DNA of 56,160 nt from Desulfobulbus sp. Lineage in GTDB: Bacteria > Desulfobacterota > Desulfobulbia > Desulfobulbales > Desulfobulbaceae. Location: contig JAQUEZ010000019.1 in NCBI GenBank assembly GCA_028684915.1, positions 1 to 56,160 on the forward strand, written 5' to 3'. The position numbers and the translations under genes are program-made. Positions 27,470 through 55,585 of this stretch are shown in pieces (position 1 is the first letter of the stretch; the number at the start of each line of letters is the position of its first letter). The notes under the pieces were generated by a model, which ran no database searches, was not told the DNA's origin, and saw only the letters and a list, made by a program, of their open reading frames with translations.

Positions 27470-28354
27470 TTAAACCAAATCTCGTACGCCGTTTTTCCCC
27501 AGACGTTTGACGACCAGGGTCGGCCGTGCCGAAATCATGGCCACACGCTCGACAACACTGCCAAGCAGGATTTTGGCCATGGCAGAACGACCATAGGTGC
27601 CGAGAACAATGAGATCGATATCGTGTTTCTCGCTGTACTGGACAATGATTTCAGAGGGTGATCCGTGGACAATATCCTTGGTCACCTTGATTCCGAAACG
27701 TTCCCCTTGGCCGATTAAGGTTTCCAGCGGCGGAAAACTGTCCTGTCGAGCCGATTCAAGCACCCCATAGAGAAAACTGCGTTCCATGGGGATATCTAAA
27801 ACTGTCAGGGCATGCACCTCGCCACCGAAGGCCAGGGCCAGCTCGAGTGCTCGCTGTCCGGCCTCCATGCTGTAGCGAGATCCATCTATGCCCACCATGA
27901 TCCGAGAAAACCCAATCTCTGCCCCTTCGGGGATCATGAGTACATCACAGGGGCTGTAGCCAATTACCTTTGTGGTGGTTTGCCCGAGAATTGCCCGCTC
28001 GATCCGGGATCGTTTGGGGTAGCCCATGATGAGCAGCCCCACATTTTCATCTTCCGCTGCGCGGATAATTTCTTCGACCGGATCGCCTATAACATGGATG
28101 GTGCGGACCTTCTGTCCCTGCTCTTCCCCGTATTGTTTCAGCTCTGCCAGGCATTGCTCAAAGGGCTGGCTAAGTTTTTCATCGGCGTTGCTGATCTTCC
28201 ACCGGTTCATGTTGCCCTCGTAGCGGGGCGTAACCGAGATGGCGATCAATTCGGCCTTAACGAACTGGGCCATGCGCAGGGCCTGTTGAAAGGCCCCCTT
28301 GCTTGCATCGCTCGGATCAACAGCAACTAGGATGGTAGAAACAGTCTCGGGCAT
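27470..28354 (-). CDS. Tandem universal stress protein
   Basis: 294 residues containing two UspA domains (about 1-145 and 150-294). Each has the ATP-binding signature late in the domain: GYPKRSRIERAILGQTTTKV in the first and GTYGRSAMAKILLGSVVERV in the second. Such proteins bind ATP and support survival under stress or anaerobic growth arrest. I start at the ATG at 28354, with GAGG six bases upstream. A GTG at 28366 would add four residues. It is 22 bases after the TauE/SafE gene in the same operon. Confidence 0.92.
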   Translation of the reverse strand: MPETVSTILVAVDPSDASKGAFQQALRMAQFVKAELIAISVTPRYEGNMNRWKISNADEKLSQPFEQCLAELKQYGEEQGQKVRTIHVIGDPVEEIIRAAEDENVGLLIMGYPKRSRIERAILGQTTTKVIGYSPCDVLMIPEGAEIGFSRIMVGIDGSRYSMEAGQRALELALAFGGEVHALTVLDIPMERSFLYGVLESARQDSFPPLETLIGQGERFGIKVTKDIVHGSPSEIIVQYSEKHDIDLIVLGTYGRSAMAKILLGSVVERVAMISARPTLVVKRLGKNGVRDLV

Positions 28355-28376
28355 ACCGTACCTCACTCAAGGTTAA

Positions 28377-29438
28377 TCAGACGTTGCTAGCGGCAGTTTT
28401 TTCCATGCTGCGCGCTTTGAACAGGTTGGTGAGGATGATTGTCGCGCCGATCAAGAGCGCACAGACCATGATGATAAAACTGACCTGGGTCAGGATTTTT
28501 ACCAAGTCATCACTCAAGGAAAGAACTTGCAGTTGGGTCAAATACTTAGGCATGGCGAAGAAGCGGCTGACGGCGACGATCAGCATGATGGTGGCCATGA
28601 CATATTTGATCATGTATTCCTTAACATAGGTGGTACCGATGGCGCCAAGCTGTACGCCGAAGAGCGAACCGGCCAGGATGAGCATAACCAGGCGAATATC
28701 AACCATGCCGTAGTAGGCCCAGATCAAGGTGCCGCCAAGGCCCATGACAAAGGCGATAACCAGCTCGGTGGCCGAGGCAACGATGGCGGAGGCACCAATG
28801 ACATACATCAGGCCGGGTACGCCGATAAACCCGCCAACGGCGATAGTGGCAGCCAGCATACCGGTGGCAATAGATACCGGAATCAAAAACCACATGCTGA
28901 TCCGCAGATTGGCTGTTTTTAACGTAATCATCGGCCAGAGTTCGATCTTCTGCAGCCGTTTGGCCAAAGTGGGACCGGCACTAGGTTGGTCATCGGGCGC
29001 ATTTTTCATTTTCATGGCGTCACGCATAACAAAAGAACCTACGATGACGAGTACACAGACAAAGACAAAGCTGACGTAGAGGTTAGAGCCGGCCGGGCCC
29101 CATTCGTCGAGAATGTATTTTTGTACCTGGATACCAATTTGGACACCAATTTCGGCAAAAAGCCCCATGATAACACCGAGTTTGATGTCAACCTGGCCGT
29201 ATTTAAACCGTTTGATGGATCCGACCAGGGCTTTGGGGAATTTGTGGCACATGTTACTGGCAACGGCCACGGTACCGGGAACGCCGAGGCTCATCATGCC
29301 CGGTGTGAGCACGAACGCGCCACCAGAACCGATGAAACCGGAAACCAGACCGCCGATGAAGCCGACGATGAAAAGAAAGACAATAGTATAAGTGTTGAGG
29401 TCGATGAAGTTGATTGCCTCAGTAATTGGTCCGTGCAT
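28377..29438 (-). CDS. TauE/SafE-family sulfite/organosulfonate exporter
   Basis: 353 residues and about eight to nine membrane helices. Its two repeated halves each carry the family pattern: GGLVSGFIGSGGAFVLTPGM in the first and MLAATIAVGGFIGVPGLMYV in the second. TauE/SafE proteins export sulfite, sulfonates or related anions. A cytoplasmic loop (about 150-180) is charged and precedes the second half. It starts at an ATG with AAAGGAG upstream. It sits between two universal stress genes, which suggests a stress-related anion export role. Confidence 0.92.
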   Translation of the reverse strand: MHGPITEAINFIDLNTYTIVFLFIVGFIGGLVSGFIGSGGAFVLTPGMMSLGVPGTVAVASNMCHKFPKALVGSIKRFKYGQVDIKLGVIMGLFAEIGVQIGIQVQKYILDEWGPAGSNLYVSFVFVCVLVIVGSFVMRDAMKMKNAPDDQPSAGPTLAKRLQKIELWPMITLKTANLRISMWFLIPVSIATGMLAATIAVGGFIGVPGLMYVIGASAIVASATELVIAFVMGLGGTLIWAYYGMVDIRLVMLILAGSLFGVQLGAIGTTYVKEYMIKYVMATIMLIVAVSRFFAMPKYLTQLQVLSLSDDLVKILTQVSFIIMVCALLIGATIILTNLFKARSMEKTAASNV

Positions 29439-29521: not shown

Positions 29522-30361
29522 TCAGGCGTTAACCTGGGCTCGGGGACGGGTGTCGGGACGTGGGGCAACCACTTTTCGATCGGTCTCGACTGCTTTTTTG
29601 CCGGCTGTCTTGGAGGCTTCAATGCCGAGCATGGACCAGAAGGAGCTGGTGAAATTGCCGTGGAGATAGGAAACCGCAAAAACGGTCGCAACCGGCAGCA
29701 GCGCATAGACGCCACCCTTTGTCCAATACTTCATGACAACATCCGAGTGGGTGAACACTGCCGCATAGAGGCCGGCGGTGAGAGCGCCAAAGACGATACA
29801 GTTTTTAACGTGGTGTGCTTTGCTGATAGTGGACATAGCGAATACTCCTTTTCCTTTGGTGATATGAAAAATGGTCTTGCTACTTTGACCTGCTTTGGTC
29901 GTAATGACCGGAAAGACGGGCACCGGAGAACCTTTGGCCACTGAGGCCAAGCGAATTCCCTTATCGATTACCACGAACTCGATACGTTTTTTGGCATGGC
30001 ACAATCTGTCGATCACGCTGGAGATTTTTCCCAGTTCGGCAACATGTTCGACAATGACACCCTGAGACTGGGCCTTGCCCTGAAAGATCTGCTCGCTTTC
30101 TTGCATACCCGAGGCAAAAAGTTTGCTCCGTTTTCCTCGGTCGCTGAAAAAAGGCAGAGTGTCGACATGGACGGCAAGAATGTTGTACTGCAGACGGTGG
30201 GCAACGTTGAGAGCGTAGTCCATTACATGTTCGGACATGTGACCATTACGGGTAACAGCCAGAATAAACGGTCGCTCCTTTTGTCGTTTTCCCTGAACTG
30301 CTGTACCGTTTTCTCGGCATTCAGCGGAATAGAGTGATGAAGGGGCTGTTGGGGTTTGCAT
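29522..30361 (-). CDS. Universal-stress domain fused to small membrane domain
   Basis: 279 residues from the ATG at 30361. Residues about 30-170 resemble a UspA half (RPFILAVTRNGHMSEHVMDY, then VVIDKGIRLASVAKGSPVPV). From residue 176 a short membrane module begins (MSTISKAHHVKNCIVFGALT, GGVYALLPVATVFAVSYLHG) with two spans and a basic tail. The codons just before MSTISK include an AAGGAG site eight bases upstream of that ATG (29836), so the membrane part may also be made alone as a 104-residue protein. A sigma-54-like promoter lies 50-64 bases upstream of the start. It is the first gene of the stress operon, 83 bases before the TauE/SafE gene. Confidence 0.78.
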   Translation of the reverse strand: MQTPTAPSSLYSAECRENGTAVQGKRQKERPFILAVTRNGHMSEHVMDYALNVAHRLQYNILAVHVDTLPFFSDRGKRSKLFASGMQESEQIFQGKAQSQGVIVEHVAELGKISSVIDRLCHAKKRIEFVVIDKGIRLASVAKGSPVPVFPVITTKAGQSSKTIFHITKGKGVFAMSTISKAHHVKNCIVFGALTAGLYAAVFTHSDVVMKYWTKGGVYALLPVATVFAVSYLHGNFTSSFWSMLGIEASKTAGKKAVETDRKVVAPRPDTRPRAQVNA

Positions 30362-30409
30362 AGAGTGTTGTGTTCCGTTTATTGTTTTTGATGCTTGTGT
30401 CCCCTTGGT

Positions 30410-30425
30410 TACAACATCTGTGCCA
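30410..30425 (-). promoter_or_regulatory. Sigma-54-like promoter of the stress operon
   Basis: Reading leftward: TGGCAC (30425-30420), five bases, TTGTA (30414-30410), against the consensus TGGCAC-N5-TTGCA. Only the -12 C is changed, and GG to -12 spacing is exact. Predicted transcription begins near 30400, about 40 bases before the start codon at 30361. Confidence 0.55.
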
Positions 30426-30502
30426 GTCACCCATTTTGGTGGTAAATAATTGAAATCATAAGATTTGTAATAGTTTTATGATTGAACATTCATTTATTTT
30501 GA

Positions 30503-30519
30503 CGTTGCATATCGCAACG
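30503..30519. promoter_or_regulatory. Enhancer-like palindrome, proximal
   Basis: CGTTGC and GCAACG arms around ATATC. Together with the site at 30556 it lies about 80-160 bases upstream of the sigma-54-like promoter, as expected for an NtrC-type activator site. Confidence 0.45.
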
Positions 30520-30555
30520 ATCGAACAGCAATCGTGTGGCTAAGTGGCATTTAGC

Positions 30556-30570
30556 GTTGCATTATGCAAC
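30556..30570. promoter_or_regulatory. Enhancer-like palindrome, distal
   Basis: A perfect 15-bp palindrome, GTTGCAT-T-ATGCAAC. Its centre is 52 bases from that of the proximal site, five helical turns, so both face the same side of the DNA. The neighbouring NtrC-type regulator (33090-34451) is the natural candidate to bind. Confidence 0.5.
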
Positions 30571-30763
30571 TTGACCGATGGGCGGTGTTGCACCGAGCAA
30601 CAACGCTCGTGTGAAAAAGGAGGGTGGGGCGAAGAACTCAGGGGGAGGGGTGGGCGAACCGGGATAAAAAGAGGGGGAAGCCAGCGGATATGTTTGGGAA
30701 AGAAGGTATTGTTTTTGCAAAAGTTATTTGTTTAGATTCCCACAGAGAGCCCTTTGGTATGAC

Positions 30764-30854
30764 TGATGGCGCTGGGAAAAACATTGCGCCTTGTATATCT
30801 GTGTTTTTACCTCGCCCTTCTTTTAGAGTGTGACGGACTCTGTACGAGTCCATC
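30764..30854 (+). repeat. Dispersed hairpin element, copy D (5'-truncated)
   Basis: Only the 3' half is intact: CTTGTATATCTGTGTTTTTAC, then CTTTTAGAGTGTGACGGACT and a terminal hairpin with one mismatch (GACGGACT..AGTCCATC). It lies just before the lon-type gene. Confidence 0.7.
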
Positions 30855-30930: not shown

Positions 30931-32961
30931 ATGTTCTTTAAGCGAAAATACGAACCGGTCGAAGAACGTCCCCCGCAGCAGGAGACCTCCCACTCCCCTT
31001 TACAAATGCTTCGCCAAAAGATCGACGAGGCCCAGTTGCCGCCACAAGTTCTGAAGACTCTAAATAATGAGCTGGAAAAACTTGATAAAACTGATTCGTC
31101 CGTTGCGGAATACTCGGTGGGGTTCAACTACATCGAACTCGTCCTGGCCCTGCCGTGGAATACATCGACCTCGTGCAAGCTCGATATTATCCGAGCCCAG
31201 GCCGTGCTCAACGCTCGCCATTACGGTTTGCAACAGGTTAAGGAACGCATCCTTGAGTTTCTTGCCGCAAAAACGCTGTGCAGTAAGGCTCAGCAGACGA
31301 TTCTCTTGGTTGACGACGAGGAGATTGCCCGGTCCAATATGGACCATGTCCTGCGTAAGGAGGGCTACACCTGCCACTGTGCCGCCAACGGAGCAGAGGC
31401 CCTGGAGGTCATGGCGCGGGAAGATGTCGACCTGGTGGTTACCGACCTGAAGATGGAACAGATGGACGGCATTGAACTGCTGCAGCAAATCAACCGGACC
31501 AATCCGGAGATTCCGGTGATCATGGTCACCGGCTTTGCAACGGTCAGCTCCGCAGTGGATGCGCTCAAGCAGGGGGCTGCCCACTATCTGGGCAAACCAG
31601 TCAATCTTGATGAACTGCGTAAAACCGTACGTGAAGTGCTGGAGAAAAAGCTCTTTGTGCAGATGGGCAAGGGACCTATCCTCTGCTTCACCGGTCCTCC
31701 AGGAACCGGAAAAACCTCGGTGGGCAAGGCTATTGCCGAGGCCCTGCAGCGTAAATTTATTCGGGTGTCGCTCGCTGGCCTTCGCGACGAGGCCGAACTT
31801 CGCGGCCACCGGCGGACCTATGTCGGTGCTCTACCTGGCCGAATCATCAACGAACTCAAACGGGCCGAAGTGAACAACCCGGTGTTTATGCTCGATGAGA
31901 TCGATAAAATCGGCCAGGATTTTCGCGGCGATCCAGCCTCTGCCCTGCTCGAGATTCTCGATCCGGAGCAGAATGTCCATTTCACCGATCATTATTTAGA
32001 GCTTCCCTTTGATCTCTCTCGGATCATGTTTATTGCCACGGCCAACGACTTGAGCAAACTGCCGGGCCCTCTTTTGGATCGCATGGAATGCATTGAATTT
32101 TCCGGATACACCGAGAAGGAAAAGTTGGAAATCGGGCAGCAGTATATCGTTCCCCGCCAGTTGAAGGTCGCAGGGTTGTTGCGCTCAGCAGTCAACTTCT
32201 CCGATGAGGCCCTGATGCGAGTGATCAGCGATTATACCCGCGAGTCGGGGCTGCGGAACCTCGAACGGCAGGTTGCCGATGTCTGTCGTAAAATTGCGAT
32301 GATGTATCTCCAGTCTGGGAGCAGCCGTGACGAACAGGTGTTGATCGACGGACCTTCGGTGCGCAAATTGCTTGGACCGCGCAAGTTTTACCGGGATGCT
32401 GCCGAGGCCGATCCTCAAATCGGCATTGCCACCGGCATGGTCTGGGCGGAAACCGGCGGGGAGATCATCAGTGTTGAGTCTGCGGTGATGACTGGTTCCG
32501 GCACGCTGTTGCTCACCGGGTCTCTTGGGGAGGTCCTGCGCGAATCAGCGCAGACGGTGCTGAGCTTTTTACGCAGTAATGCTGAACTGTTCGATATAGC
32601 AGATAATTTTTTTTGCAACACCGATATTCACATCCACTTTCCCTCGGGCGCGGTTTCCAAGGATGGGCCTTCAGCAGGGGTCACTATCTTTGCATCCTTG
32701 CTTTCCCTGCTCACGAAACGGCCTGCCAGGCGAGATGTGGCCCTGACCGGCGAGATGACCCTGACCGGGCGGATTTTACCGGTAAGTGGAATTCGCGAAA
32801 AGGTGCTGGCCGCCAAACGGGCAGGAGTGCAGACCGTGGTTTTACCCTATGCCAATCGGGAGGTGGTCGAAGCCCTGGATGGTGATGTCAGCGAAGGGCT
32901 CCAAATAGTGTTGGTATCCAATGTCCATGAGATCATAGAACATCTTTTCGTGACCTCTTGA
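30931..32961 (+). CDS. Lon-type protease with an internal receiver (REC) domain
   Basis: 676 residues. The usual N-terminal LON substrate domain is missing. Residues about 40-118 match the helical stretch before the Lon ATPase (ELEKLDKTD, LALPWNTS, HYGLQQVKERILEFLA). A complete receiver domain follows at about 122-238: acidic pair D128/D129, phospho-Asp D172, T200 and K222 all present. AAA+ then resumes with Walker A GPPGTGKT (255-262) and Walker B FMLDEIDKIG. The Lon-type peptidase has Ser581 (DGPSAGVT) and Lys624 (GIREKVLAAK), 43 apart as in E. coli Lon. The receiver sits exactly between helical lead-in and ATPase, so phosphorylation could control unfolding. Start ATG 30931 follows GAAAGGAT; the open frame to 30766 lies in element D. 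It converges on an NtrC-type regulator and kinase. Confidence 0.93.
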   Translation: MFFKRKYEPVEERPPQQETSHSPLQMLRQKIDEAQLPPQVLKTLNNELEKLDKTDSSVAEYSVGFNYIELVLALPWNTSTSCKLDIIRAQAVLNARHYGLQQVKERILEFLAAKTLCSKAQQTILLVDDEEIARSNMDHVLRKEGYTCHCAANGAEALEVMAREDVDLVVTDLKMEQMDGIELLQQINRTNPEIPVIMVTGFATVSSAVDALKQGAAHYLGKPVNLDELRKTVREVLEKKLFVQMGKGPILCFTGPPGTGKTSVGKAIAEALQRKFIRVSLAGLRDEAELRGHRRTYVGALPGRIINELKRAEVNNPVFMLDEIDKIGQDFRGDPASALLEILDPEQNVHFTDHYLELPFDLSRIMFIATANDLSKLPGPLLDRMECIEFSGYTEKEKLEIGQQYIVPRQLKVAGLLRSAVNFSDEALMRVISDYTRESGLRNLERQVADVCRKIAMMYLQSGSSRDEQVLIDGPSVRKLLGPRKFYRDAAEADPQIGIATGMVWAETGGEIISVESAVMTGSGTLLLTGSLGEVLRESAQTVLSFLRSNAELFDIADNFFCNTDIHIHFPSGAVSKDGPSAGVTIFASLLSLLTKRPARRDVALTGEMTLTGRILPVSGIREKVLAAKRAGVQTVVLPYANREVVEALDGDVSEGLQIVLVSNVHEIIEHLFVTS

Positions 32962-33089: not shown

Positions 33090-34451
33090 TCAGGCGTCTG
33101 GATTTTCCAGACCGTAGCGTTTGATTTTTCGCCACAGGGAAACCCGGTCGATGCCGAGAATTTTGACCGCGGCGGATTTGTTGCCCTCAACCTCGTCGAG
33201 CACATCTAAGATGTACTGCTTTTCGTGTTCGGCTAAGGTCGGCCATTCCTGGCGGTTGTCGCGGATGCTGAGCCATTCGGTGTCGCCAAAGACCGCAGCA
33301 ATGTGCTGCGGTTCGACCACATCCCCATCACAGGCGATGAGTATACGTTGGGCGATGTTTTCGAGCTCCCTGATATTCCCAGGATATTCATAGGACATCA
33401 GACGTCGTTCCGCATCAGGGGAGAGTCGGGGGAGGGTTCGGCCGGTATGGGCGTATTTGGCAAGAAAATGGTGGGTGAGGAGGGAGATGTCTTCTCGGCG
33501 TTCAGCCAGGGAGGGGGCATTGATGGTGAGCACATCAAGGCGGTAAAAAAGGTCGGAGCGAAAGGCCCCGGTTTCGGTTTCCCGCTTGAGGTCCTTGTTG
33601 GTGGCTGCCAACACCCGGAAATCGACTGAAATTTCCTGGGTACCCCCGACCCGCATCACGGTTCGTTCCTGAAGCACCCGCAGCAGTTTGACCTGCATCG
33701 AGAGCGGCAACTCGCCAACCTCGTCAAAGAAGACCGTGCCGCCTTCGGCCATTTCCAGGAGTCCTTTTTTCGCCTTATTGGCCCCAGTAAAGGCACCCCG
33801 TTCATACCCGAAGAGTTCGCTGGCGATCAACTCTTCGGTAAAAACCCCGCAGTTGAAGGCCACAAAGCGCTTTTTGCAGCGCGGACTCAATTCGTGGATG
33901 GTGCGGGCAATCAATTCTTTGCCGGTGCCGGTCTCGCCCTGGATGAGTACGTTGCAGTCGAGCTGGGAAACCTGGTGGATCGTTTCGCGCAGAGCCTGGA
34001 TCTTGGGGCTTTGGCCGACAATGCGCCGCGTATCGCTCTGGGTGTCGACCTGCTCGCGTAATTCCTTGATCTGTCGACGGAGCTGGTTTTTCTCCAGCGC
34101 CTTTTCCACGATCATCCGCAGTTCATTGATCTTGAACGGCTTGGCCACGTAGTCATAGGCTCCGCGACGCATGGCCTCAACCGCCGTATCCACCGTGGCA
34201 TGGCCCGTGATGACCACCACCTCGATATCCGGCCACAACTGCTTGGCCTCGTCCAACACCGCCATGCCGTCCTTGCCTTTCATGCACAGGTCGGTCAGAA
34301 TCAGGTTGATCTCTTCCTGCCTGAGGATACTGACGGCCTCTTCGCCATCTGCGGCCACCCACGTTTGGTAGCCGTCCTTGCTGATGATATGGTCCAGGTT
34401 GTCGCGGGCGATGGGTTCATCGTCCACGATGAGAATTTTTAAGTTATTCAT
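33090..34451 (-). CDS. NtrC-family sigma-54 response regulator
   Basis: 453 residues: receiver (about 1-120; ILIVDDEP, phospho-Asp in ILTDLCMK, Thr in VITGHA, Lys in VAKPFK), AAA+ activator domain (about 145-385; Walker A GETGTGKE, sigma-54 contact loop GAFTGA, Walker B GTVFFDEVGEL) and a Fis-type helix-turn-helix (NKSAAVKILGIDRVSLWRKI). Its receiver strongly resembles that of the Lon-type protease (VDDE-IAR-N-DH and TDL in both). It follows the sensor kinase gene by nine bases and so is its partner. Predicted targets are the palindromes at 30503 and 30556 ahead of the stress operon. Confidence 0.95.
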   Translation of the reverse strand: MNNLKILIVDDEPIARDNLDHIISKDGYQTWVAADGEEAVSILRQEEINLILTDLCMKGKDGMAVLDEAKQLWPDIEVVVITGHATVDTAVEAMRRGAYDYVAKPFKINELRMIVEKALEKNQLRRQIKELREQVDTQSDTRRIVGQSPKIQALRETIHQVSQLDCNVLIQGETGTGKELIARTIHELSPRCKKRFVAFNCGVFTEELIASELFGYERGAFTGANKAKKGLLEMAEGGTVFFDEVGELPLSMQVKLLRVLQERTVMRVGGTQEISVDFRVLAATNKDLKRETETGAFRSDLFYRLDVLTINAPSLAERREDISLLTHHFLAKYAHTGRTLPRLSPDAERRLMSYEYPGNIRELENIAQRILIACDGDVVEPQHIAAVFGDTEWLSIRDNRQEWPTLAEHEKQYILDVLDEVEGNKSAAVKILGIDRVSLWRKIKRYGLENPDA

Positions 34452-34460
34452 GCCCTTGCT

Positions 34461-35894
34461 CTAGGAGTGATCCTTCTCGCCGGGAAAGGGAAGGCGAATA
34501 AAGAAGGATGTACCCTGACCGAGTTCGCTTTGCACGGTAATTGTGCCCTGATGACTTTGAATAATGCCGTAAACCACCGAAAGTCCTAGCCCCGTTCCCT
34601 GGCCTTCTTCTTTGGTCGTGAAGAAAGGATCAAAGATTTTCACCTGATTTTCCTCAGGGATTCCCGATCCTGTATCTCTTACCTCAATCACCACATCCTT
34701 GGTGGTAAAGTCGAGGGTCGCAGTAATGGCAATTTCTCCCTGGCGTTCGATTGCCTGAGCCGCGTTAATGATCAGATTGATGAACACCTCCTGCATCCGT
34801 TGCACATCAATATAAAAAATCAAATCCTCCGGGATATCGATGGTCATGGCGATGTTGGGCGGGACTTGGCTTTTGGCCAACAAGACCGCTTTTTTCACCA
34901 CATCGGAGAGCTGAATTTCTCTTAGGCAGAAATCCTGGGAGCGGGAGAATTCAAGCAGACTTTTGACAACATCTCGTGCTCGTAGGGTTTCCTGATCGAT
35001 ATTGTTGAGCATTTTTTTCATGAAAAGGACATCGCCACCGTCAAATTCATCAATCGCTATCTGGCAAGAGGTGGAGATGTTGTTGAGCGGATTATTGAGC
35101 TGGTGGGCCACACCCGCGGTCAGGGTTCCCAGGGAGGAAAGTTTTTCTGCCTGGATGAGTTGATCTTGGCGCCGTTCAAGTTCGGAGACCATGATGTTGA
35201 AGGCCTCCATCACCTGTTGGATCTCGTCGCGGGTGTTGATGACCTCAATTTTGCGGAATTTCCCTTGGGCAATATCCACGGTGGCCTTTTTGATGACCGA
35301 CAGCGGTTTGAAAATAAAATAAACGATCAAGATAGAGAGAACAATGCCGATACAAATCGCCACCGACGACCAGGAAATGAGCTGGCCGCGCAGGAGCGAG
35401 ATCATGAGATGGATCTGATTTTTTTCGAAAATAACAATTTCTTCACTGATTTCCGAGATGACCTTGCCCTGATGGCGGATGGTGTCGGCAATCTCGGTGT
35501 TGCTCAGGTCGTTGGTGTTGCTAATTGCCTGCAATTCACCAATGGTTTGGAGATAGGTACTAATCTCCCGTTCGAGTTCCTTGAGCTTGGGATTGACCGC
35601 CAGATTTTTATCGGTGCTGAAAATGCGTTTCCCCAGATCCAGCGCATCACTGAGCATACGCTTGTTTTCTTCCAGGGCCTCTTTATGGCCGTAAAGGAAG
35701 TAATTTTTTTCAAATCGGCGGGCCTCGAGCACGATGTTGTGAATGCCGTAGGAAAACTCGAGGATACCGATTTTCTTCTCCGTGGTCACCAAGTCGTCAT
35801 AGCTGACATAGGCCATCATGGAAATGGCACTAATATAAAAAATCAGCACGGTGAGAATTTTGGAACTCAGGCCAAAGGAAAATTGTTTTAACAT
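34461..35894 (-). CDS. Membrane sensor histidine kinase
   Basis: 477 residues: a transmembrane helix at about 10-30 (KILTVLIFYISAISMMAYVS), a helical extracytoplasmic sensor of about 140 residues, a second helix near 172-195 (SVAICIGIVLSILIVYFIF), HAMP, then HisKA (GTLTAGVAHQLNNPLNNIS) and ATPase (N box INLIINAAQAIE, DTGSGIPEEN, GTGLGLSVVYG). The four-helix-bundle type sensor has no recognisable ligand motif. The ATG has AAGGAG upstream. It is the first gene of the kinase/regulator operon; the regulator follows after nine bases. The DNA upstream (35895-36059) shows no clear promoter to me. Confidence 0.94.
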   Translation of the reverse strand: MLKQFSFGLSSKILTVLIFYISAISMMAYVSYDDLVTTEKKIGILEFSYGIHNIVLEARRFEKNYFLYGHKEALEENKRMLSDALDLGKRIFSTDKNLAVNPKLKELEREISTYLQTIGELQAISNTNDLSNTEIADTIRHQGKVISEISEEIVIFEKNQIHLMISLLRGQLISWSSVAICIGIVLSILIVYFIFKPLSVIKKATVDIAQGKFRKIEVINTRDEIQQVMEAFNIMVSELERRQDQLIQAEKLSSLGTLTAGVAHQLNNPLNNISTSCQIAIDEFDGGDVLFMKKMLNNIDQETLRARDVVKSLLEFSRSQDFCLREIQLSDVVKKAVLLAKSQVPPNIAMTIDIPEDLIFYIDVQRMQEVFINLIINAAQAIERQGEIAITATLDFTTKDVVIEVRDTGSGIPEENQVKIFDPFFTTKEEGQGTGLGLSVVYGIIQSHQGTITVQSELGQGTSFFIRLPFPGEKDHS

Positions 35895-45081: not shown

Positions 45082-47714
45082 ATGTCTTTTGCTGATTTTT
45101 TTCAAGCTGCTACCGGCGGCAACGTTCCTTTCAGCTATCAATGCCGAATTGCCTGCGGCGACCAAGCCGACCCCGCTAAGCCCGATACATTGACAGGCGG
45201 AACCGACTGCGCTTCTCGCCTGATTTCCATTCCCACAGGACTCGGCAAAACTGCTGCAGTCGTCCTTGCTTGGCTGTGGAATCGTGTTGTGCTTGGCAAA
45301 GAAGACTGGCCGCGCCGCCTGGTCTATTGTTTGCCGATGCGCACCCTTGTGGAACAAACACGAGATGAAGTTGCACGGTGGATCAATGCCCTCTTAAAGG
45401 AATATCCTGGCAATTCAGACCTTGAATGGCTTGCAAAGTATTCTCCGGTCATCCTCATGGGCGGAGAAGAAAACGACCCTGCCCGTCGCGAATGGGACAT
45501 CCACCCTGAAAAGCCCGCGATCCTTATCGGTACGCAGGACATGCTCCTCTCCCGTGCTCTCAATCGAGGCTATGGCATGTCCCGCGCCCGTTGGCCCATG
45601 CACTTTGGGTTGTTGAACAACGATGCCTTGTGGGTGATGGATGAAACGCAATTGATGGATGTTGGCCTTGCGACTTCTGCACAACTCCAGGCGTTTCGCA
45701 ACGATGACCAGCAAAGAATTTTTCACCCCGCATACACTTGGTGGATGAGCGCAACACTGCAACCTGATTGGTTAAAAACTCCTGAGACTGCTTCATATAT
45801 TCCAGCATTAAAAGACAAGATCCTCGAAACAGCCGCGACTGATCGCTTTGGCCGTCTCTGGGAGGGCGTAAACAAAATCCTGCAACTTGAAAATGTACGG
45901 GAAGAAAAACAACTTGCAGGATTTGCGATTGAAAAAACGAATGACGCTCAAACAACCCTCATTATTGTCAATACCGTCAAGCGTGCTATCGCGGTTTATG
46001 ATGCTCTTGTCAAAAACAAGCAGGTGCAGGCGAGTCGAGATATCCATCTGGTGCATTCTCGCTTCCGCCCTTGCGACAGGACAAAGTGGCGTGATTCTTT
46101 TTTGCGTAAGGATGCTCCAGTCAATAAACCCCGTATCATTGTTGCCACACAAGTTGTCGAAGCGGGCGTTGATATTTCAGCGGATGTGTTGATCACCGAC
46201 CTTGCCCCCTGGACGAGTCTTGTTCAACGCTTTGGCCGGGCTGCCCGATATGGCGGCCAAGCCCATGTTTATGTAATCGATATTGAGGAAGAAAAGAAAG
46301 CCGCTCCTTATAACTACGCCGAACTAGAGGCCGCGCGCATCGAGCTGAAAGATTTGCCGGACGTTTCCATTCAATCGCTGGAAAATTTTGAAAAGTCGCT
46401 TGCACCCGAACGGAAACGTGAGCTGTATCCCTATGCGCCAGCTTTTCTGCTGTTGCGGCGGGAAATAGAGGAACTCTTTGATACTTCCGCCGACCTCACC
46501 GGCGCGGATTTGGATGTTTCCCGTTTTATCCGAAGTGGCGAGGATAACGATTGTCAAATTGCCTGGATACAGTTGGGCAAAGACGAAACACCCTCTGTGG
46601 ATTACCAACCCTCCCGTGAAGAACTGTGCGCAATTCCCATCGGTGATACCCGAAAATTCACCAAAGACAAAAGAGGGATGGTCTGGAAGTGGGACTATCT
46701 CGACAAAACTTGGACACAAGCAAACGAGCGAGACATATATCCAGGTATGACTCTTTTGGCCGATGCCGAGGCGGGCGGATATGACCCCAAACGAGGCCTA
46801 GATCTTTCAATAAAAAAATCAGTGCCTTGCTTGGTCGCACGGGTTCCCGTCTCGTCTGCTTCGGCTGCTGATGGGGCTGAAGACGATGAATCTTTATCGG
46901 AAGTGAACGATTGGCAAACTATTGCCGAACATGGGCAACAGGCGGCGGCAATTCTGCAAGCCATGAATCTTGCGGCCAAACCACTTACGCCTCTTCTTGA
47001 TGCCGCTGCCCGCTGGCATGACCTTGGCAAAGCACATCCTGCCTTTGTCTCGATTCTCAAACCTGATGCTTCGGGCCACCCCGGTGGAGATATAGCCAAA
47101 GCGCCCCGAGGTGCATGGCTGAAACCTCCGCGGTATAAAGTAACCGATATCGACCCTCGCCCTGGTTTTCGCCATGAACTTGCGTCATCCCTTGCGCTCA
47201 TTGATCTCCTGAAACAGTGTGCGCCGCACCATCAAGCTCTGCTTGGGCCTTGGGCGAATTATTTGAATCATGGGCAAGCTGCAACAGTACAACCAACCAA
47301 CGACGCCACACCCATTCAAAACCATCTTGTTCAGTTTTCGGCGGACGAGTTCAACTTGCTCCTCTATTTGATCGCCGCACATCACGGCAAAGTCCGCTTT
47401 AGTATGCAGGCATCTCCAGCCGATCAAAAGCATCCGGTGGCGAAAACAGGCGATGCCATGCCAATTCGGGGTGTTGTTGAAGGCGATACCATCCCAGCAA
47501 TACAGCTCACCATGCCGGGTGGTGCCTCTGCACCCATACCCGCAACACACATGACGCTTGAACCCGCGAAGATTGGCCTGTCTGAGCAGACCGGAGCAAG
47601 CTGGGCGGAACGCTGCGCCACGCTGCTTGAACAATATGGCCCATTTAGTCTTGCTTGGCTTGAAACGCTTATCCGTGCCGCAGACGCCCAGGCTTCAAGG
47701 GAGGGGAACAAACA

Positions 47715-47718
<4 letters not shown>
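45082..47718 (+). CDS. cas3: Cas3 helicase-nuclease, type I-G (C-terminal HD)
   Basis: 878 residues. The SF2 helicase comes first: motif I IPTGLGKTAA (about 50-60), motif II VMDETQLMDVG, motif III MSATLQ, motif V/VI VVEAGVDISADV and QRFGRAARYG. The HD nuclease is at the C-terminus (ARWHDLGKAHPAF near 645-657, then HELASSLAL and LIAAHHGKVR), the reverse of most Cas3 and typical of type I-G/I-U. Cas3 degrades the target DNA opened by Cascade. The ATG follows AGGAGGTGG. It overlaps csx17 by four bases (ATGA). Confidence 0.94.
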
Positions 47719-50856
<3,138 letters not shown>

Positions 50857-50865
50857 GGAGCCAGT

Positions 50866-52446
50866 ATGCCCACGCTTTCCATCCGTTTTACCGGCGGGCA
50901 CTACCACGCCACACCGTGGAATAAGGCTCAAAACGAAGGAGCCGTCGAATGGCCGCCGTCGCCCTGGCGTATTTTGCGCGCACTGATTGCCACAGGCTAT
51001 GCCAAAATGGCCGAGTGGCAAAATGGTCTTGTCCCTGAGAGAGCGAAAATGCTCATCGAAAAACTGGCTTCGGTGGTTCCCTCATACCGTTTACCTGAGG
51101 CCACAGGTACCCATTCACGGCACTATATGCCCATCAAAGGAAAAACAACCCTTGTCCTTGATGCACGGGCGGTTGTTGGTGTCAATCATGAGCAGCTCCT
51201 TGTGCATTGGGATATCGAACTGGCGCCGGAAGAAGAAAATCTTCTCTCCGAACTTGCGGCCCGTCTCGGCTACCTTGGCCGCGCCGAATCCTGGACAGAA
51301 TGCGCGTTGGTAGAAGATGTGCCCATAACTGGTGACTGGGTTCGGCCCTGCGAGAATGTCCCCCCGGAAAAAATTGGCCATGGTTGGGAACAAATTCCGC
51401 TTATGGCTCCTGTTTCTTCACCAGCCTACCAAACATGGCGGCAGGCGGCCTTTGACAAGGAGTTTGGCGACAAGAAACCAAAAGCGAGCGAGTTGAAAAA
51501 ATTCAATGCGCTGTACCCCACCGACCTGCTGGCCTGTCTTCAGGTAGAAACTGGCTGGCTGCAAAGCAAGGGATGGAGCCAACCTCCGGGGGCGCACCTG
51601 GTATTGTATTGGCGTCCGGCGCGAAACGCGCTTGGCGTTGCTCCGCCGGTTCTGGTGCAGCGGCAACCTCGCAAACCTGTGCCCTTTGCCTTGCTGGCGC
51701 TTGCCACAAATGCCCGCAGCCGTTCCCCTATGCCGCTTGCCAAGCGAACCCTGCCACAGGCGGAATTGCTCCACCGCACCATTGCAAGTTTTGTCGGTAA
51801 AACAGGAAGTGCGCAAGCTGCCGCTGAACTGCTGGGTTTTGATGAGCAACGCAAGCCACTTACCGGGCACCGCCACGGCCATGCCCATATTCTGCCACTT
51901 TGTTTGCTCAAAGATGACCACCATCTGGACCATATTCTGATATGGGCTCCTGGTGGATTAAGTGACATTTCGCAGGATATTTTGCGCCGCATCCGTGAAA
52001 CCTACATGAAAGGCGGCGTGGGCACACTTGCTGTTCGTTTCGCTGGGGCAGGGACGGCGGAAGACTTCGCCGCAATACCGGCGCTGCGTCCGATGATAAG
52101 TGCCTCCAGCGTTTGGCAATCACTCTCGCCGCTTGTCTTGCCTCGCCATCGTAAAGCCAAGGGTAAAGATACGCCAGATGGTCAAATCGTTGCCGAACTT
52201 GCATCGCGTGGCCTTCCGGCACCGGAAATAATTGAATGGCTTCGAGTTGAAAGCATTGCGATGCGCCATCATGTACGTTCCCGCCGTAATGGAGCCTCAC
52301 CGCCCGAAGACTACGGTTATGCACTGCGTCTTACCTTTGCCGAACCAATAACCGGTCCAATCTGCTTGGGGTATGCCTCCCACTTCGGCCTCGGCTTATT
52401 CGCACCAGTACCTGCCGGATCACCAACCCAAAGAAACGAAACATGA
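50866..52446 (+). CDS. csb2: Csb2 (GSU0054), Cas5-Cas6 fusion
   Basis: 526 residues. The N-terminal Cas5-like part begins LSIRFTGGHYHATPWNKA and EWPPSPWRILRALIA. The C-terminal part resembles Cas6 (HAHILPLCLLKDDHHLDHIL, then GPICLGYASHFGLGLFAPV, a Gly-rich loop with nearby His). In type I-G this one protein caps the crRNA 5' end and processes pre-crRNA. Ribosome site AAGGAG. The last codon overlaps the next start as ATGA. Confidence 0.91.
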   Translation: MPTLSIRFTGGHYHATPWNKAQNEGAVEWPPSPWRILRALIATGYAKMAEWQNGLVPERAKMLIEKLASVVPSYRLPEATGTHSRHYMPIKGKTTLVLDARAVVGVNHEQLLVHWDIELAPEEENLLSELAARLGYLGRAESWTECALVEDVPITGDWVRPCENVPPEKIGHGWEQIPLMAPVSSPAYQTWRQAAFDKEFGDKKPKASELKKFNALYPTDLLACLQVETGWLQSKGWSQPPGAHLVLYWRPARNALGVAPPVLVQRQPRKPVPFALLALATNARSRSPMPLAKRTLPQAELLHRTIASFVGKTGSAQAAAELLGFDEQRKPLTGHRHGHAHILPLCLLKDDHHLDHILIWAPGGLSDISQDILRRIRETYMKGGVGTLAVRFAGAGTAEDFAAIPALRPMISASSVWQSLSPLVLPRHRKAKGKDTPDGQIVAELASRGLPAPEIIEWLRVESIAMRHHVRSRRNGASPPEDYGYALRLTFAEPITGPICLGYASHFGLGLFAPVPAGSPTQRNET

Positions 52447-53903
52447 ACACATTATTCCCACCCAGCGAAGGCATCGCTCTCGAATACAAGGAAGCGGCGG
52501 ACAGCCTGCCGAAGAACTTCTTTGAAACCGTGTGCGCCTTTCTCAATCGCGATGGCGGCCTTATCGTCCTTGGTGTTGCCGATGACGGCACGATTACCGG
52601 CATCAACCCCGGTGCCGTCGGGCGCATCAGGGCCGACATCGCCAACCTCTCCAACAATCCGCAGAAACTGGACCCGCCGTACCTGCTTTTCCCACATGAG
52701 GAAACCGTTGACGGCAAAGTTATCATCCGCGTTCAGGTGCCGTGCAGTTCGCAGGTGCATCGCAGCGGCGGTGAGGTGTTTCTGCGCAGTGAGGATGGCG
52801 ATTATCGGCTCAAAGACCCGTATCAGATCGCGGGGCTGGTCAACCGGAAACTGAGTTTCTATACCGAACAGCGCGTTATCCCTTGGCTGGGCATGGAGGA
52901 CTTGAATCCTGCGCTTTTTGACCGTAGCCGCGAGTTGTTTCGGCAACATCACAGCAGCCATCCTTGGCTTGGGTTGGACAATGAAGGCCTCCTGCGCACC
53001 GGCGGGTTCATCCGCAAAGATCCGCTTTCGGCGGAAACCGGCTATACACTTGCTGCTGCGCTGATGTTCGGCAGCGATGCCACCATCGGCCAAGTGGCCC
53101 CGGCCATGTCGTTTGACGCCCTGCTGCGCCGCCGCAATCTTGACCGCTATGATGACCGCCTGCTCCTGCACACCAACCTGATCGACACTTTTGATCTGCT
53201 GATGGGCTTTGTAGAGAAACACCTCGACGATCCGTTTTTCATGGAGGGGACTCAGCGGGTGAATCTGCGCGACCGCATTTTCCGCGAACTCGTTTCCAAC
53301 CTCATCGCCCATCGAGAGTACACCAGCGCTGCGCCAGCCTCGGTGACGATTTATGCAGACCAGGTTGTGTTCAAAAACCCGCATGTGCCGCATATTCTCG
53401 GCCGCCTCGACCCTGCCAATTTTACCCCTTTTCCTAAAAATCCGGTCATTTGCAACTTCATGCTCCATATTGGTCGCTATGAGCAGGCGGGGTCAGGCGT
53501 CCACAATGTCAGCAAATATCTGCCGCAGTATACACCCAATGCGGTTCCGTTTTTTGAGGAATTGAACGACATCTTTTCGGCAACCATCCCCTTGCCGGGG
53601 AAAGGGGAGACCCCCGAAGTCACCCCCGAAGTCACCCCCGAAGTCACCCCCGAAGTCACCCCCGAAGTCACCCCCGAAGTCGTCGAGCTGCTTCGGGTCA
53701 TGGAGGGCGAGATGAACCGGCGGGAAATCATGGATCTATTGGGCCTCAAGGACGAAAAACATTTCCGGGAGCACTACCAGCAACGGGCCATCAAGGCTGG
53801 AGTCATCGAGTTGACCATTCCTGATAAACCCACCAGTCGGCTGCAGAAATATCGGCTTACAGCTCTGGGACGAACAATTATACAAACGCATCGAAAGCCA
53901 TGA
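52443..53903 (+). CDS. AlbA_2/HATPase-like regulator embedded in the cas operon
   Basis: 486 residues. An N-terminal Schlafen-AlbA_2 domain (about 1-135; LEYKEAADSLPKNFFETVCA, DGGLIVLGVADDGTITGI) is followed by a HATPase_c_4-type module (about 250-370; FRELVSNLIAHREYTSAAPA, GRYEQAGSGVHNV), then a linker of six TPEV units (390-413) and a C-terminal winged helix (about 415-480; EMNRREIMDLLGLKDEKHFR). Family members are DNA-binding regulators or RecG-like proteins. It overlaps both csb2 and cas4-cas1 by four bases, so it is translated with them. It is not a standard cas gene. It could regulate the operon or be a coupled defence component; a function is not established. Confidence 0.88.
   Translation: MNTLFPPSEGIALEYKEAADSLPKNFFETVCAFLNRDGGLIVLGVADDGTITGINPGAVGRIRADIANLSNNPQKLDPPYLLFPHEETVDGKVIIRVQVPCSSQVHRSGGEVFLRSEDGDYRLKDPYQIAGLVNRKLSFYTEQRVIPWLGMEDLNPALFDRSRELFRQHHSSHPWLGLDNEGLLRTGGFIRKDPLSAETGYTLAAALMFGSDATIGQVAPAMSFDALLRRRNLDRYDDRLLLHTNLIDTFDLLMGFVEKHLDDPFFMEGTQRVNLRDRIFRELVSNLIAHREYTSAAPASVTIYADQVVFKNPHVPHILGRLDPANFTPFPKNPVICNFMLHIGRYEQAGSGVHNVSKYLPQYTPNAVPFFEELNDIFSATIPLPGKGETPEVTPEVTPEVTPEVTPEVTPEVVELLRVMEGEMNRREIMDLLGLKDEKHFREHYQQRAIKAGVIELTIPDKPTSRLQKYRLTALGRTIIQTHRKP
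53610..53681 (+). repeat. 12-bp coding tandem repeat (six TPEV units)
   Basis: Six identical 12-base units (ACCCCCGAAGTC) in frame. A change in copy number would alter the linker by four residues without a frameshift. Confidence 0.9.
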
Positions 53904-55585
53904 ACGAAACTATCACCACTCCCCTCATCCCTGTCCGCATGGTTAACGAGTATGTCTATTGTCCGCGTCTGGCCTACATGATGTGGGTACAGGGGGAGTT
54001 TGCCCACAGTGCCGACACGGTGGAAGGGGCCATTCGCCACAAGCGGGTGGACAAGGAGGGCGGCAAACTGCCGGTTGAGACCCCCGCTGAACCGGAAATC
54101 ATTCACGCCCGCTCGGTGTCGCTCAGCTCCGAAGCCCTGGGCATAACTGCCAAGATTGATCTGGTGGAGGGCGTCGGCGTCGAGGTACAGCCGGTGGACT
54201 ACAAAAAAGGCAAGCGGCCCCATGTACCTGCCGGTGCCTATGCGCCGGAACGGGTCCAGGTTTGCGCCCAGGGACTGCTGCTGCGGGAGCATGGCTATGA
54301 GGTGGACCATGGATTTCTCTACTTTATCGGCTCAAAGGAGCGTGTCAGGGTGGCCTTTGACGAGGAGTTGCTTGGCGAAACCCTGGCCGCCATTGAGGGC
54401 TTACGTGGCCTCAGCCAGGAGGACACATCACCGCTGCCCCTGGTCGACAGTCCCAAATGCGGCCGTTGCTCGCTGATCGGCATCTGTCTGCCCGACGAGG
54501 TCGGTTTGCTCACCCAGCAGCGCATCGATGTGCGCCCCATCTATCCACAGGTTGAAACCGCTCTGCCACTCTACGTACAGTCACCGGCCAGCTATGTGCG
54601 CAAGGATGGCGAGCAGTTGATCATCGAGGAAAACCGGGAAAGGGTGGCCGAGGCCCGGTTGATGGACACCTCTCAGGTGGTGCTCTTTGGCCATTGCGGC
54701 ATGAGCACCCCAGCGCTGCACGAGTGCTGCAAACGGCAAATTCCTGTCACCTTCATGAGTTATGGTGGCTGGTTTATCGGTCACTGCGTTGGTACCGGCC
54801 ATCATAATGTGCAAAACCGCACTGCCCAATACCGAACCAGTTTTGACGAAACCGCCTGTCTGCACCTGGCGCGACGGCTGGTCACCGCCAAAATTCAGAA
54901 TTGCCGCACCCTGTTGCGGAGGAACTGGAAGGGCGGCGACGAAGAGGGGGAAAAGGCTCCGGCTGACGTCTTGATCGGCCTGAAAAACGATATGCTGCAA
55001 TCAGCGCGGACCCATTCGTTGCAGACGCTGCTGGGAGTAGAGGGAAACGCCGCCCGGCGTTACTTTGAGCACCTTAGCGCCATGATCTCCGTGGAAAAAC
55101 GAGCCGTGGCCGGTGGGTTCGATTTCAACGGTCGCAACCGTCGCCCTCCCAAGGATCCGATCAATGCGTTGCTTTCCTTTGCCTATGCGATGCTGACCAG
55201 GGAGTGGACCGTCACCTTGTCTGCGGTGGGGTTGGACCCGTATCGCGGCTTTTATCATCAGATGCGCTTTGCCCGCCCGGCCCTGGCCCTGGACATGATG
55301 GAGCCATTTCGGCCGCTGGTGGCCGATTCAGCGGTGATCACCGCCATCAATAACGGCGAGGTCAGGCAAGAGGATTTCATCATCGCCTCCACCGGATGCA
55401 ATCTGAAGGCACCCGGGCGCAAGCGGTTTATAGCCGCTTTTGAACGGCGCATGAACCAGGAGGTCACCCACCCGATATTCAACTATCGGCTCAGCTATCG
55501 GCGACTGTTCGAGGTGCAGGCCCGGTTGCTGACTCGTTTCCTGAGCGGGGAGATTCCCCGCTATCCAACCTTTGTGACCCGGTGA
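53900..55585 (+). CDS. cas4-cas1: Cas4-Cas1 fusion, type I-G
   Basis: 561 residues. Cas4 (about 1-205): Cys in YVYCPRLAYM and three in CGRCSLIGIC make the 4Fe-4S site; the nuclease core includes VDYKKGKRP and QVCAQGLLL. Cas1 (about 215-561) has all three metal ligands: Glu in LLGVEGNAARRYF, His in GFYHQMRF, Asp in LALDMMEPFRP. Cas4 trims prespacers at the PAM end and Cas1-Cas2 integrates them. The fusion is characteristic of type I-G. Overlap of four bases with the upstream regulator; cas2 follows after ten bases. Confidence 0.95.
   Translation: MNETITTPLIPVRMVNEYVYCPRLAYMMWVQGEFAHSADTVEGAIRHKRVDKEGGKLPVETPAEPEIIHARSVSLSSEALGITAKIDLVEGVGVEVQPVDYKKGKRPHVPAGAYAPERVQVCAQGLLLREHGYEVDHGFLYFIGSKERVRVAFDEELLGETLAAIEGLRGLSQEDTSPLPLVDSPKCGRCSLIGICLPDEVGLLTQQRIDVRPIYPQVETALPLYVQSPASYVRKDGEQLIIEENRERVAEARLMDTSQVVLFGHCGMSTPALHECCKRQIPVTFMSYGGWFIGHCVGTGHHNVQNRTAQYRTSFDETACLHLARRLVTAKIQNCRTLLRRNWKGGDEEGEKAPADVLIGLKNDMLQSARTHSLQTLLGVEGNAARRYFEHLSAMISVEKRAVAGGFDFNGRNRRPPKDPINALLSFAYAMLTREWTVTLSAVGLDPYRGFYHQMRFARPALALDMMEPFRPLVADSAVITAINNGEVRQEDFIIASTGCNLKAPGRKRFIAAFERRMNQEVTHPIFNYRLSYRRLFEVQARLLTRFLSGEIPRYPTFVTR

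What the first reader, a model, noticed from the sequence alone, without database searches (positions are those of the whole stretch)
30931..32961. Lon-type protease carrying a receiver domain in front of its ATPase
A complete REC domain (D128/D129, D172, T200, K222) lies between the helical lead-in and Walker A, while the normal LON substrate domain is missing. The peptidase Ser581 and Lys624 are 43 residues apart, as in E. coli Lon, so both halves look functional. Standard Lon has no receiver. Phosphorylation could gate the ATPase and make proteolysis a direct two-component output.
Basis: partly seen in the sequence, partly recalled or inferred. Interest (0 to 1): 0.88.

Follow-up and report, generated by a model that had tools for sequence, protein, structure and literature searches.

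The report
Lon protease with built-in receiver domain
A bacterial protein-destroying machine (Lon) carries a signal-receiving domain inside its motor and sits beside a sensor kinase and a gene regulator, so a signal could control protein destruction directly; the design was noted in a sulfate-reducing bacterium in 2011, and no test of how it works turned up here.

Summary
In detail: 30931-32961 (+) encodes an uninterrupted 676-aa LonA-type protease with a complete receiver (REC) and no LON domain. The REC interrupts the AAA+ module just before the Walker A strand. The 347 proteins listed by three homologue searches all keep D128/D129/D172/T200/K222; 345 share one insert length. REC-Lon occurs in 56 of 144 and 64 of 149 genomes of two class samples; each of 33 REC-Lon genomes searched also holds a separate Lon without receiver. 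It often lies near a histidine kinase, a sigma54 regulator and a Usp/TauE gene group, shares kinase-contact segments with that regulator, and has palindromes TTGCN5GCAA upstream. It is not new: Rajeev 2011 (PMC3333781, passages) describes DVU3303-3305 of Desulfovibrio vulgaris as a 'three-component system' with a Lon-containing response regulator that may need phosphorylation; PMC10102598 (passage) reports cofitness above 0.9. Best reading: one kinase drives transcription and phospho-gated proteolysis. Phosphotransfer, direction of gating and substrates are untested, and the chlorate data do not fit simple activation of the divergent genes.

The parts
30931..32961 (+). REC-Lon protease gene (676 aa)
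   Evidence: conserved start
30994..31281 (+). helical lead-in (residues 22-117: three-helix region plus first AAA+ helix), homologous to residues 8-103 of the 3m6a sequence; the usual LON substrate domain is absent
31294..31650 (+). REC domain (residues 122-240) inserted in the AAA+ module; phospho-acceptor D172 at 31444-31446
31669..32106 (+). AAA+ alpha/beta core (residues 247-392): Walker A 255-262, Walker B D322/E323, pore-loop Y297, sensor N372, R384
   Evidence: roles of Y297, N372 and R384 assigned from family knowledge (recalled)
32413..32952 (+). Lon peptidase domain (residues 495-674), Ser581 (32671-32673), Lys624 (32800-32802)
33090..34451 (-). partner response regulator: REC, sigma54 activator (GAFTGA), Fis-type DNA-binding helix
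34461..35894 (-). histidine kinase: HAMP, HisKA, HATPase
30505..30517 (.). palindrome TTGCN5GCAA (candidate regulator site 1)
30557..30569 (.). palindrome TTGCN5GCAA (candidate regulator site 2)
30588..30600 (.). palindrome TTGCN5GCAA (candidate regulator site 3)
30704..30719 (+). weak sigma54-like -24/-12 element before REC-Lon (tentative)
   Evidence: score 8.5; a second candidate at 30773 scores 9.2
29522..30430 (-). divergent gene 1: Usp-like protein with C-terminal membrane helices (no Pfam hit; start uncertain)
   Evidence: Usp likeness and membrane helices judged by eye
28377..29438 (-). divergent gene 2: TauE/SafE family transporter
27470..28366 (-). divergent gene 3: double universal stress protein

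Best explanation
REC-Lon is the proteolytic arm of a three-gene stress system. The histidine kinase (34461-35894) phosphorylates two receivers: that of the sigma54 regulator (33090-34451), which controls REC-Lon and the divergent Usp/TauE genes through TTGCN5GCAA sites, and D172 of REC-Lon. The REC sits inside the AAA+ module, its helix alpha5 running into the strand that carries the Walker A loop. Phosphorylation at D172 would shift the T200/Y219 switch and the alpha4-beta5-alpha5 face, and so license ATP hydrolysis or ring assembly. The result is a Lon that is made and made active only under signal and degrades a specific set of proteins; house-keeping degradation stays with the separate canonical Lon. 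Shown: architecture, conservation, synteny, sites, canonical Lon in related genomes. Inferred: phosphotransfer from this kinase, site function, gating, its direction (activation favoured), the substrates.
For: Phospho-site and Walker A residues invariant (347 of 347 for D128, D129, E130, D172, T200, K222, G255, G260, K261, T262; Y219 345 of 347), insert length 129 in 345 of 347. Model: REC alpha5 226-246 leads to AAA+ beta1 250-254 (mean pLDDT 83.8, 74 for residues 241-250). Kinase-contact segments (alpha1 + beta5-alpha5) of Lon-REC match the same-locus regulator at 0.54 against 0.35 on average for 24 other regulators, 22 of 22 pairs; the middle of the domain (144-220) hardly differs (0.45 against 0.42, 14 of 22). 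Partner regulator in 53 of 56 REC-Lon genomes against 36 of 88 others (Fisher p 1e-11), within 20 kb in 43 of 56. TTGCN5GCAA: the three copies in the window all lie between REC-Lon and the divergent genes; 20 of 34 upstream regions carry it, 0.21 expected by shuffling; it lies at the start of the kinase gene in 6 of 8 relatives without REC-Lon in the stretch held. Print: DVU3305 regulates DVU3303-3305 and DVU3302-3298; cofitness above 0.9 of the three genes.
Against: No biochemistry found. Direction of gating is a guess. In chlorate, loss of DVU3303-3305 helps D. vulgaris while loss of the target DVU3299 hurts; this does not fit simple activation of the divergent genes by the system. The cofitness may reflect polarity, as the three genes are one operon there. 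Regulators of other REC-Lon loci are nearly as close to Lon-REC as the cognate one (0.49; cognate closer in 13 of 22), and the cognate exceeds the best of the 24 others in only 10 of 22: a shared kinase is not proven. 13 of 56 REC-Lon genomes have no regulator within 20 kb, 3 none at that threshold, and the threshold also admits a Lon-less paralogue. 14 of 34 upstream regions lack the palindrome. Sigma54 elements are weak (7 of 34; shuffled mean 2.0, maximum 6). Six REC-Lon rows list a stop inside; only one was looked at.
Confidence: 0.55

Rival explanations
1. REC as built-in adaptor: the REC replaces the lost LON domain as substrate-docking platform, and phosphorylation changes which substrates bind rather than ATPase activity, like free-standing receiver adaptors of ClpXP (RssB, CpdR; recalled) fused to their protease.
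For: LON substrate domain absent; REC is the only extra module found; NCBIfam lists RssB and CpdR among the REC hits, as it does many other receivers.
Against: The insert is inside the AAA+ core with nearly fixed length (345 of 347), which a docking module would not need. The REC as a whole is about as conserved as the peptidase domain (0.56 against 0.58), which speaks neither for nor against.
Confidence: 0.2
2. Negative feedback: phosphorylated REC-Lon degrades the kinase or the regulator, or its REC drains phosphate from the kinase, switching the system off.
For: REC-Lon appears to be a target of the regulator, the usual layout of feedback; similar kinase-contact segments.
Against: In D. [quoted passage not shown] PMC10102598, passage read), whereas a brake should be opposite; polarity could explain this.
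Confidence: 0.17
3. The REC is a structural relic: it is retained for folding or oligomerisation, and proteolysis does not depend on phosphorylation.
For: Canonical Lon works without it (recalled); no activity data.
Against: A relic should lose the acceptor site; 347 of 347 listed homologues keep the five phospho-site residues, and 35 of 35 in a more diverse set (that set was partly picked by REC patterns).
Confidence: 0.05

Closest known systems
DVU3303 (with HK DVU3304 and RR DVU3305) of Desulfovibrio vulgaris Hildenborough, Rajeev et al. 2011, PMC3333781
   Same: Response regulator containing a Lon protease, kinase and sigma54 regulator next to it, neighbouring operon of membrane and UspA-type proteins regulated by the RR, suggested phospho-activation. 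Nitratidesulfovibrio, the genus that now holds D. vulgaris, has the same architecture in N. liaohensis, 51% identical to the window protein (P0269).
   Different: In the window kinase and regulator lie on the strand opposite to the Lon gene (convergent). The DVU3303 sequence itself was not fetched.
Canonical LonA (E. coli 6u5z, B. subtilis 3m6a, 4ypl)
   Different: LON domain missing; REC inserted in the AAA+ module; a canonical-type Lon exists besides it in 33 of 33 REC-Lon genomes.
LonB (archaeal)
   [quoted passage not shown] PMC9569914, passages read).
   Different: Here the insert is a REC; the active site is A-type (Pro-Ser).
NtrC-type regulators (4l4u, 1ny5) and other receivers
   Same: REC plus AAA+ in one chain; the partner regulators of this kind are among the nearest receivers in the tree. 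By sequence the top solved receiver is Spo0F (6ifh).
   Different: There the REC precedes the AAA+ domain, and the output is transcription, not proteolysis.

Membership tests
LonA-type Lon protease (S16) | curated Lon model above cut-off; Lon_C, AAA and Lon lid domains | tested here: met
   TIGR00763 716.6 bits against 608; Pfam
LonA-type Lon protease (S16) | Ser-Lys dyad 42 residues apart, Pro before Ser (PMC9569914, passages) | tested here: met
   S581, K624, P580; in 347 listed homologues S in 333 (9 gaps, 5 other), K in 331 (11 gaps, 5 other), P in 329
LonA-type Lon protease (S16) | N-terminal LON domain (PF02190) and extended N-region | tested here: not met
   no PF02190; none in the precomputed Pfam lists; the protein starts about 21 residues before the helical lead-in
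Receiver (REC) domain, phosphorylatable | acidic pair, acceptor Asp, Thr, Lys, aromatic switch residue | tested here: met
   Pfam E 9e-32; residues 347 of 347, Y219 345 of 347 with F in 2
Receiver (REC) domain, phosphorylatable | is actually phosphorylated | not testable with these tools
   needs a phosphotransfer assay
DVU3303-3305 three-component system | Lon-REC with kinase, sigma54 RR and a neighbouring Usp/membrane-protein gene group | tested here: met
   printed description
DVU3303-3305 three-component system | RR binds the promoters of Lon-REC and the Usp group | tested here: inconclusive
   palindromes in place, but DVU3305's printed motif (Figure 8, Table S9) could not be read as letters
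DVU3303-3305 three-component system | sequence orthology to DVU3303 itself | not tested
   sequence not fetched; same-genus homologue P0269 51% identical
LonB | membrane-anchoring insert in the AAA+ module | tested here: not met
   the insert is a REC domain

The most novel reading that the evidence does not exclude
An AAA+ protease whose motor is switched by Asp phosphorylation through a receiver built into the nucleotide-binding module (REC alpha5 to Walker A strand), so that one histidine kinase drives transcription and regulated proteolysis in parallel: a proteolytic output class for two-component systems, found here in samples of two bacterial classes and one further phylum.
Probability: 0.45. 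Interest if true: 0.8.

Novelty: new member of a known kind. Interest (0 to 1): 0.47.

Why it matters
Two-component outputs are mostly transcription or second messengers (general knowledge); a receiver that directly commands an ATP-dependent protease would be a different kind of output and a natural phosphorylation-controlled Lon. The family is common in the two classes sampled (56 of 144 and 64 of 149 genomes), one of them the class to which the genetically used Desulfovibrio vulgaris belongs (that the sample is that class is inferred from its Desulfocurvus centre), so the 2011 suggestion is directly testable. The insertion point found here says where to look for the coupling.

Tried and rejected
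Frameshift or gene fusion by misassembly: rejected. Degenerate receiver: rejected. Search of the window's own genome for a canonical Lon: not possible, no genome held; relatives used instead. Sigma54 promoter conserved across loci: not established; strict scan 7 of 34 against a shuffled mean of 2.0 and maximum of 6; the window's candidates are weak. Origin of the Lon receiver from the partner regulator: the tree puts 31 of 35 Lon receivers in one set (support 95) and four, all of Nitrospirota, near the partner regulators, but those forks are open and columns few, so neither a single origin nor the donor is settled. Place of the REC in the hexamer: no coordinates available, not attempted. Earlier print: eight literature searches (one search found no paper); in these listings of open-licence papers I saw no biochemical study of a REC-Lon, which does not exclude one elsewhere. 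The 2008 survey of serine proteases (PMC2605481, passages) and the 2022 Lon subfamily paper (PMC9569914, passages) have no occurrence of 'receiver' or 'response regulator' in the main text. The passages shown of PMC12471899, PMC8846402, PMC3431258 and PMC12579266 hold nothing on it. No direct repeats of 20 bases or more in the last 761 bases of the window.

Selection effects: the homologue sets are the best 120 rows of three searches with 7,828, 7,889 and 7,990 scored hits, so they favour close relatives. In one search, 22 of 35 REC-Lon loci had a near-full-length partner regulator in the held stretch; the 24 'other' regulators are those left of the 34 non-partner ones after I set aside ten by hand as Lon-less relatives of the partner (L037-L043, L046, L054, L063). 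Two regulator rows without usable sequence were dropped before the tree and the comparison (93 rows, 91).

Full report

Conservation. Three homologue searches list 347 different proteins, the window's own included, some of them fragments. All 347 keep D128, D129, E130, D172, T200, K222 and the four Walker A residues tested; Y219 is Y in 345 and F in 2; the insert is 129 long in 345, 128 and 130 in one each; Ser581 is S in 333 (9 gaps, 5 other) and Lys624 K in 331 (11 gaps, 5 other). These are the best rows of each search, hence mostly close relatives. In 35 more diverse copies (window, L001, L004-L036; down to 51% identity, two cut at their 3' end before the active site, one lacking the part before the receiver) the REC residues are kept in 35 of 35, and Ser and Lys in the 33 that reach so far; insert length is 129 in 31, 128 in 2, 130 in 2. 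That set was found with patterns in the receiver, so it partly selects for those residues.

Distribution. At E <= 1e-180, a level that plain Lons did not reach with this query (best 3e-161), 56 of 144 genomes sampled from the class of L004's genome (a Desulfoprunum MAG), 64 of 149 from the class of L018's (a Desulfocurvus MAG) and 19 of 148 from the phylum of L026's (a Nitrospirae MAG) hold a REC-Lon. Of 35 genomes searched, 33 hold a REC-Lon (G020 only a contig-edge piece) and all 33 also hold at least one further Lon whose match begins only at the AAA+ domain (in G011 a partial match at a contig edge); the other two hold only such Lons. L016's genome was not held. So REC-Lon is an accessory Lon. 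The window's own genome is not held, so this could not be checked there.

Neighbourhood. In the window a kinase (HAMP, HisKA, HATPase) and a sigma54 regulator with a receiver lie downstream on the opposite strand; upstream, divergent, are a Usp-like protein with apparent membrane helices, a TauE/SafE transporter and a double Usp. A TauE relative at 59% identity or more is in 23 of 33 loci L004-L036 (divergent in 21; several loci are short contigs; L027 has one at 33%) and a near-full-length partner regulator in 21 of 33. In the class sample of 144 genomes a regulator match (E <= 1e-118) is in 53 of 56 REC-Lon genomes and in 36 of 88 others (p 1e-11); it is within 20 kb of REC-Lon in 43 of 56 and within 1 kb in 17. 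That threshold also admits a Lon-less paralogue of the regulator, so 53 is an upper count for the true partner. Kinase-regulator pairs without a REC-Lon in the held stretch exist (L037-L046), though the genome of L037 has a REC-Lon elsewhere.

Shared kinase? Receivers choose their kinase mainly through helix alpha1 and the beta5-alpha5 loop (established knowledge, recalled). Over 22 loci with both proteins, these segments are 0.54 identical between Lon-REC and the regulator of the same locus, against 0.35 on average with 24 other regulators (22 of 22 loci higher); residues 144-220 give 0.45 against 0.42 (14 of 22), the whole domain 0.47 against 0.40 (20 of 22). Against this: the best of the 24 others equals or beats the cognate in 12 of 22, and regulators of other REC-Lon loci are nearly as close (0.49; cognate closer in 13 of 22). 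The data support a common kinase type for both, not pair-by-pair co-evolution.

Control of expression. TTGCN5GCAA occurs three times in the 56,160-base window, all at 30505-30600, between REC-Lon and the divergent genes. Upstream regions (620 bases) of 20 of 34 REC-Lon genes carry it (34 copies in 21,080 bases; 24 copies in the other 523,829 bases of these loci; shuffling of single bases gives 0.21 regions). In 8 of the 34 two copies lie 87-91 bases apart; some of these loci are close relatives, and the window's own spacings are 52 and 31. Of eight loci with the kinase-regulator pair but no REC-Lon in the stretch (L037-L043, L046), six have a copy at the start of the kinase gene (L038, L039, L041, L042, L043, L046), as expected of an autoregulator's site; L037 has none and L040 one inside the regulator gene; the more distant L044 and L045 have none. 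I take it as the regulator's binding site; that is inference. The sigma54 promoter is not clear: L004 and L005 have aligned TGGAATN5TTGCA elements, the window only weak ones.

What is already in print. Rajeev et al. 2011 (PMC3333781, passages read) describe in D. vulgaris Hildenborough 'a three-component system' of kinase DVU3304, sigma54 regulator DVU3305 and DVU3303, 'another RR ... [quoted passage not shown] DVU3305 regulates its own operon and DVU3302-3298 (membrane and hypothetical proteins, some with UspA domains); one or both operons are upregulated in high pH, heat shock and stationary phase; [quoted passage not shown] orthologues of DVU3305 occur in D. baculatum, D. retbaense, Thermodesulfovibrio and others, in most of them associated with the Lon RR. 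PMC4641369 (passage) repeats the targets. PMC10102598 (passage) reports that the three genes are detrimental in chlorate with all pairwise cofitness above 0.9, and that the target DVU3299, a putative anion transporter, is important there. The window's system is of this kind: same genes, same neighbouring Usp/transporter group, 51% identity to a copy in Nitratidesulfovibrio, the genus that now holds D. vulgaris. The finding is thus a new member of a known, little studied kind. Not in the passages I read are the insertion inside the AAA+ module, the near-fixed insert length, the keeping of the phospho-site across hundreds of relatives, the second Lon in the same genomes and the similar kinase-contact segments.

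Mechanism. I favour activation: a protease made under signal, from a promoter controlled by the same kinase, makes most sense if phosphorylation also licenses it, and in D. vulgaris the protease and the regulator have the same fitness direction. The last point is weakened by possible polarity. One printed result speaks against a simple scheme: losing the system helps in chlorate although losing its target DVU3299 hurts, so the system may hold that operon down rather than switch it on, or act through the protease in a way not foreseen here. Rivals are a docking role for the receiver (0.2), negative feedback or phosphate sink (0.17) and an inert receiver (0.05).

Noticed in passing
window 45082-55585 (+): CRISPR-Cas genes of type I-G (Cas3-type helicase, Csb1/Cas7g by TIGR02570, Cas4-Cas1 fusion) with a Schlafen AlbA_2 plus Fic-like C-terminal protein (52443-53903) inside the gene row; the large proteins 47715-49886 and 50866-52446 have no Pfam hit at 1e-6. 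No direct repeats of 20 bases or more in the last 761 bases.
   Followed up: partly
L036:7548-9563 (= G032); also G011:C59, G049:C73, G365:C1, G333:C2, G371:C91: Six REC-Lon rows list one stop (TAG or TGA) inside the matched stretch. In L036 the TAG lies at the junction between the lead helix and the receiver; the place of the others was not looked at and may be the natural end. Decay, error or recoding not distinguished.
   Followed up: partly
L001 (IMG/VR contig IMGVR_UViG_2834727745_000003): A contig filed as viral begins with a complete REC-Lon (53% identical), followed by repressor-like, transposase-like and AAA genes that resemble, by eye, a Mu-type element; probably a host gene beside an insertion.
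   Followed up: no
window 29522-30430 (-): Conserved Usp-like protein whose C-terminal part (two apparent membrane helices) matches in many loci where the N-terminal part does not, and which has no Pfam or NCBIfam hit; the GTG start is probably too far upstream.
   Followed up: partly
G001, G079, G120 and others: Several genomes hold, besides the partner regulator, a second relative of it scoring about 430 bits against the window's regulator; some of these rows list one stop, whose place was not looked at.
   Followed up: no
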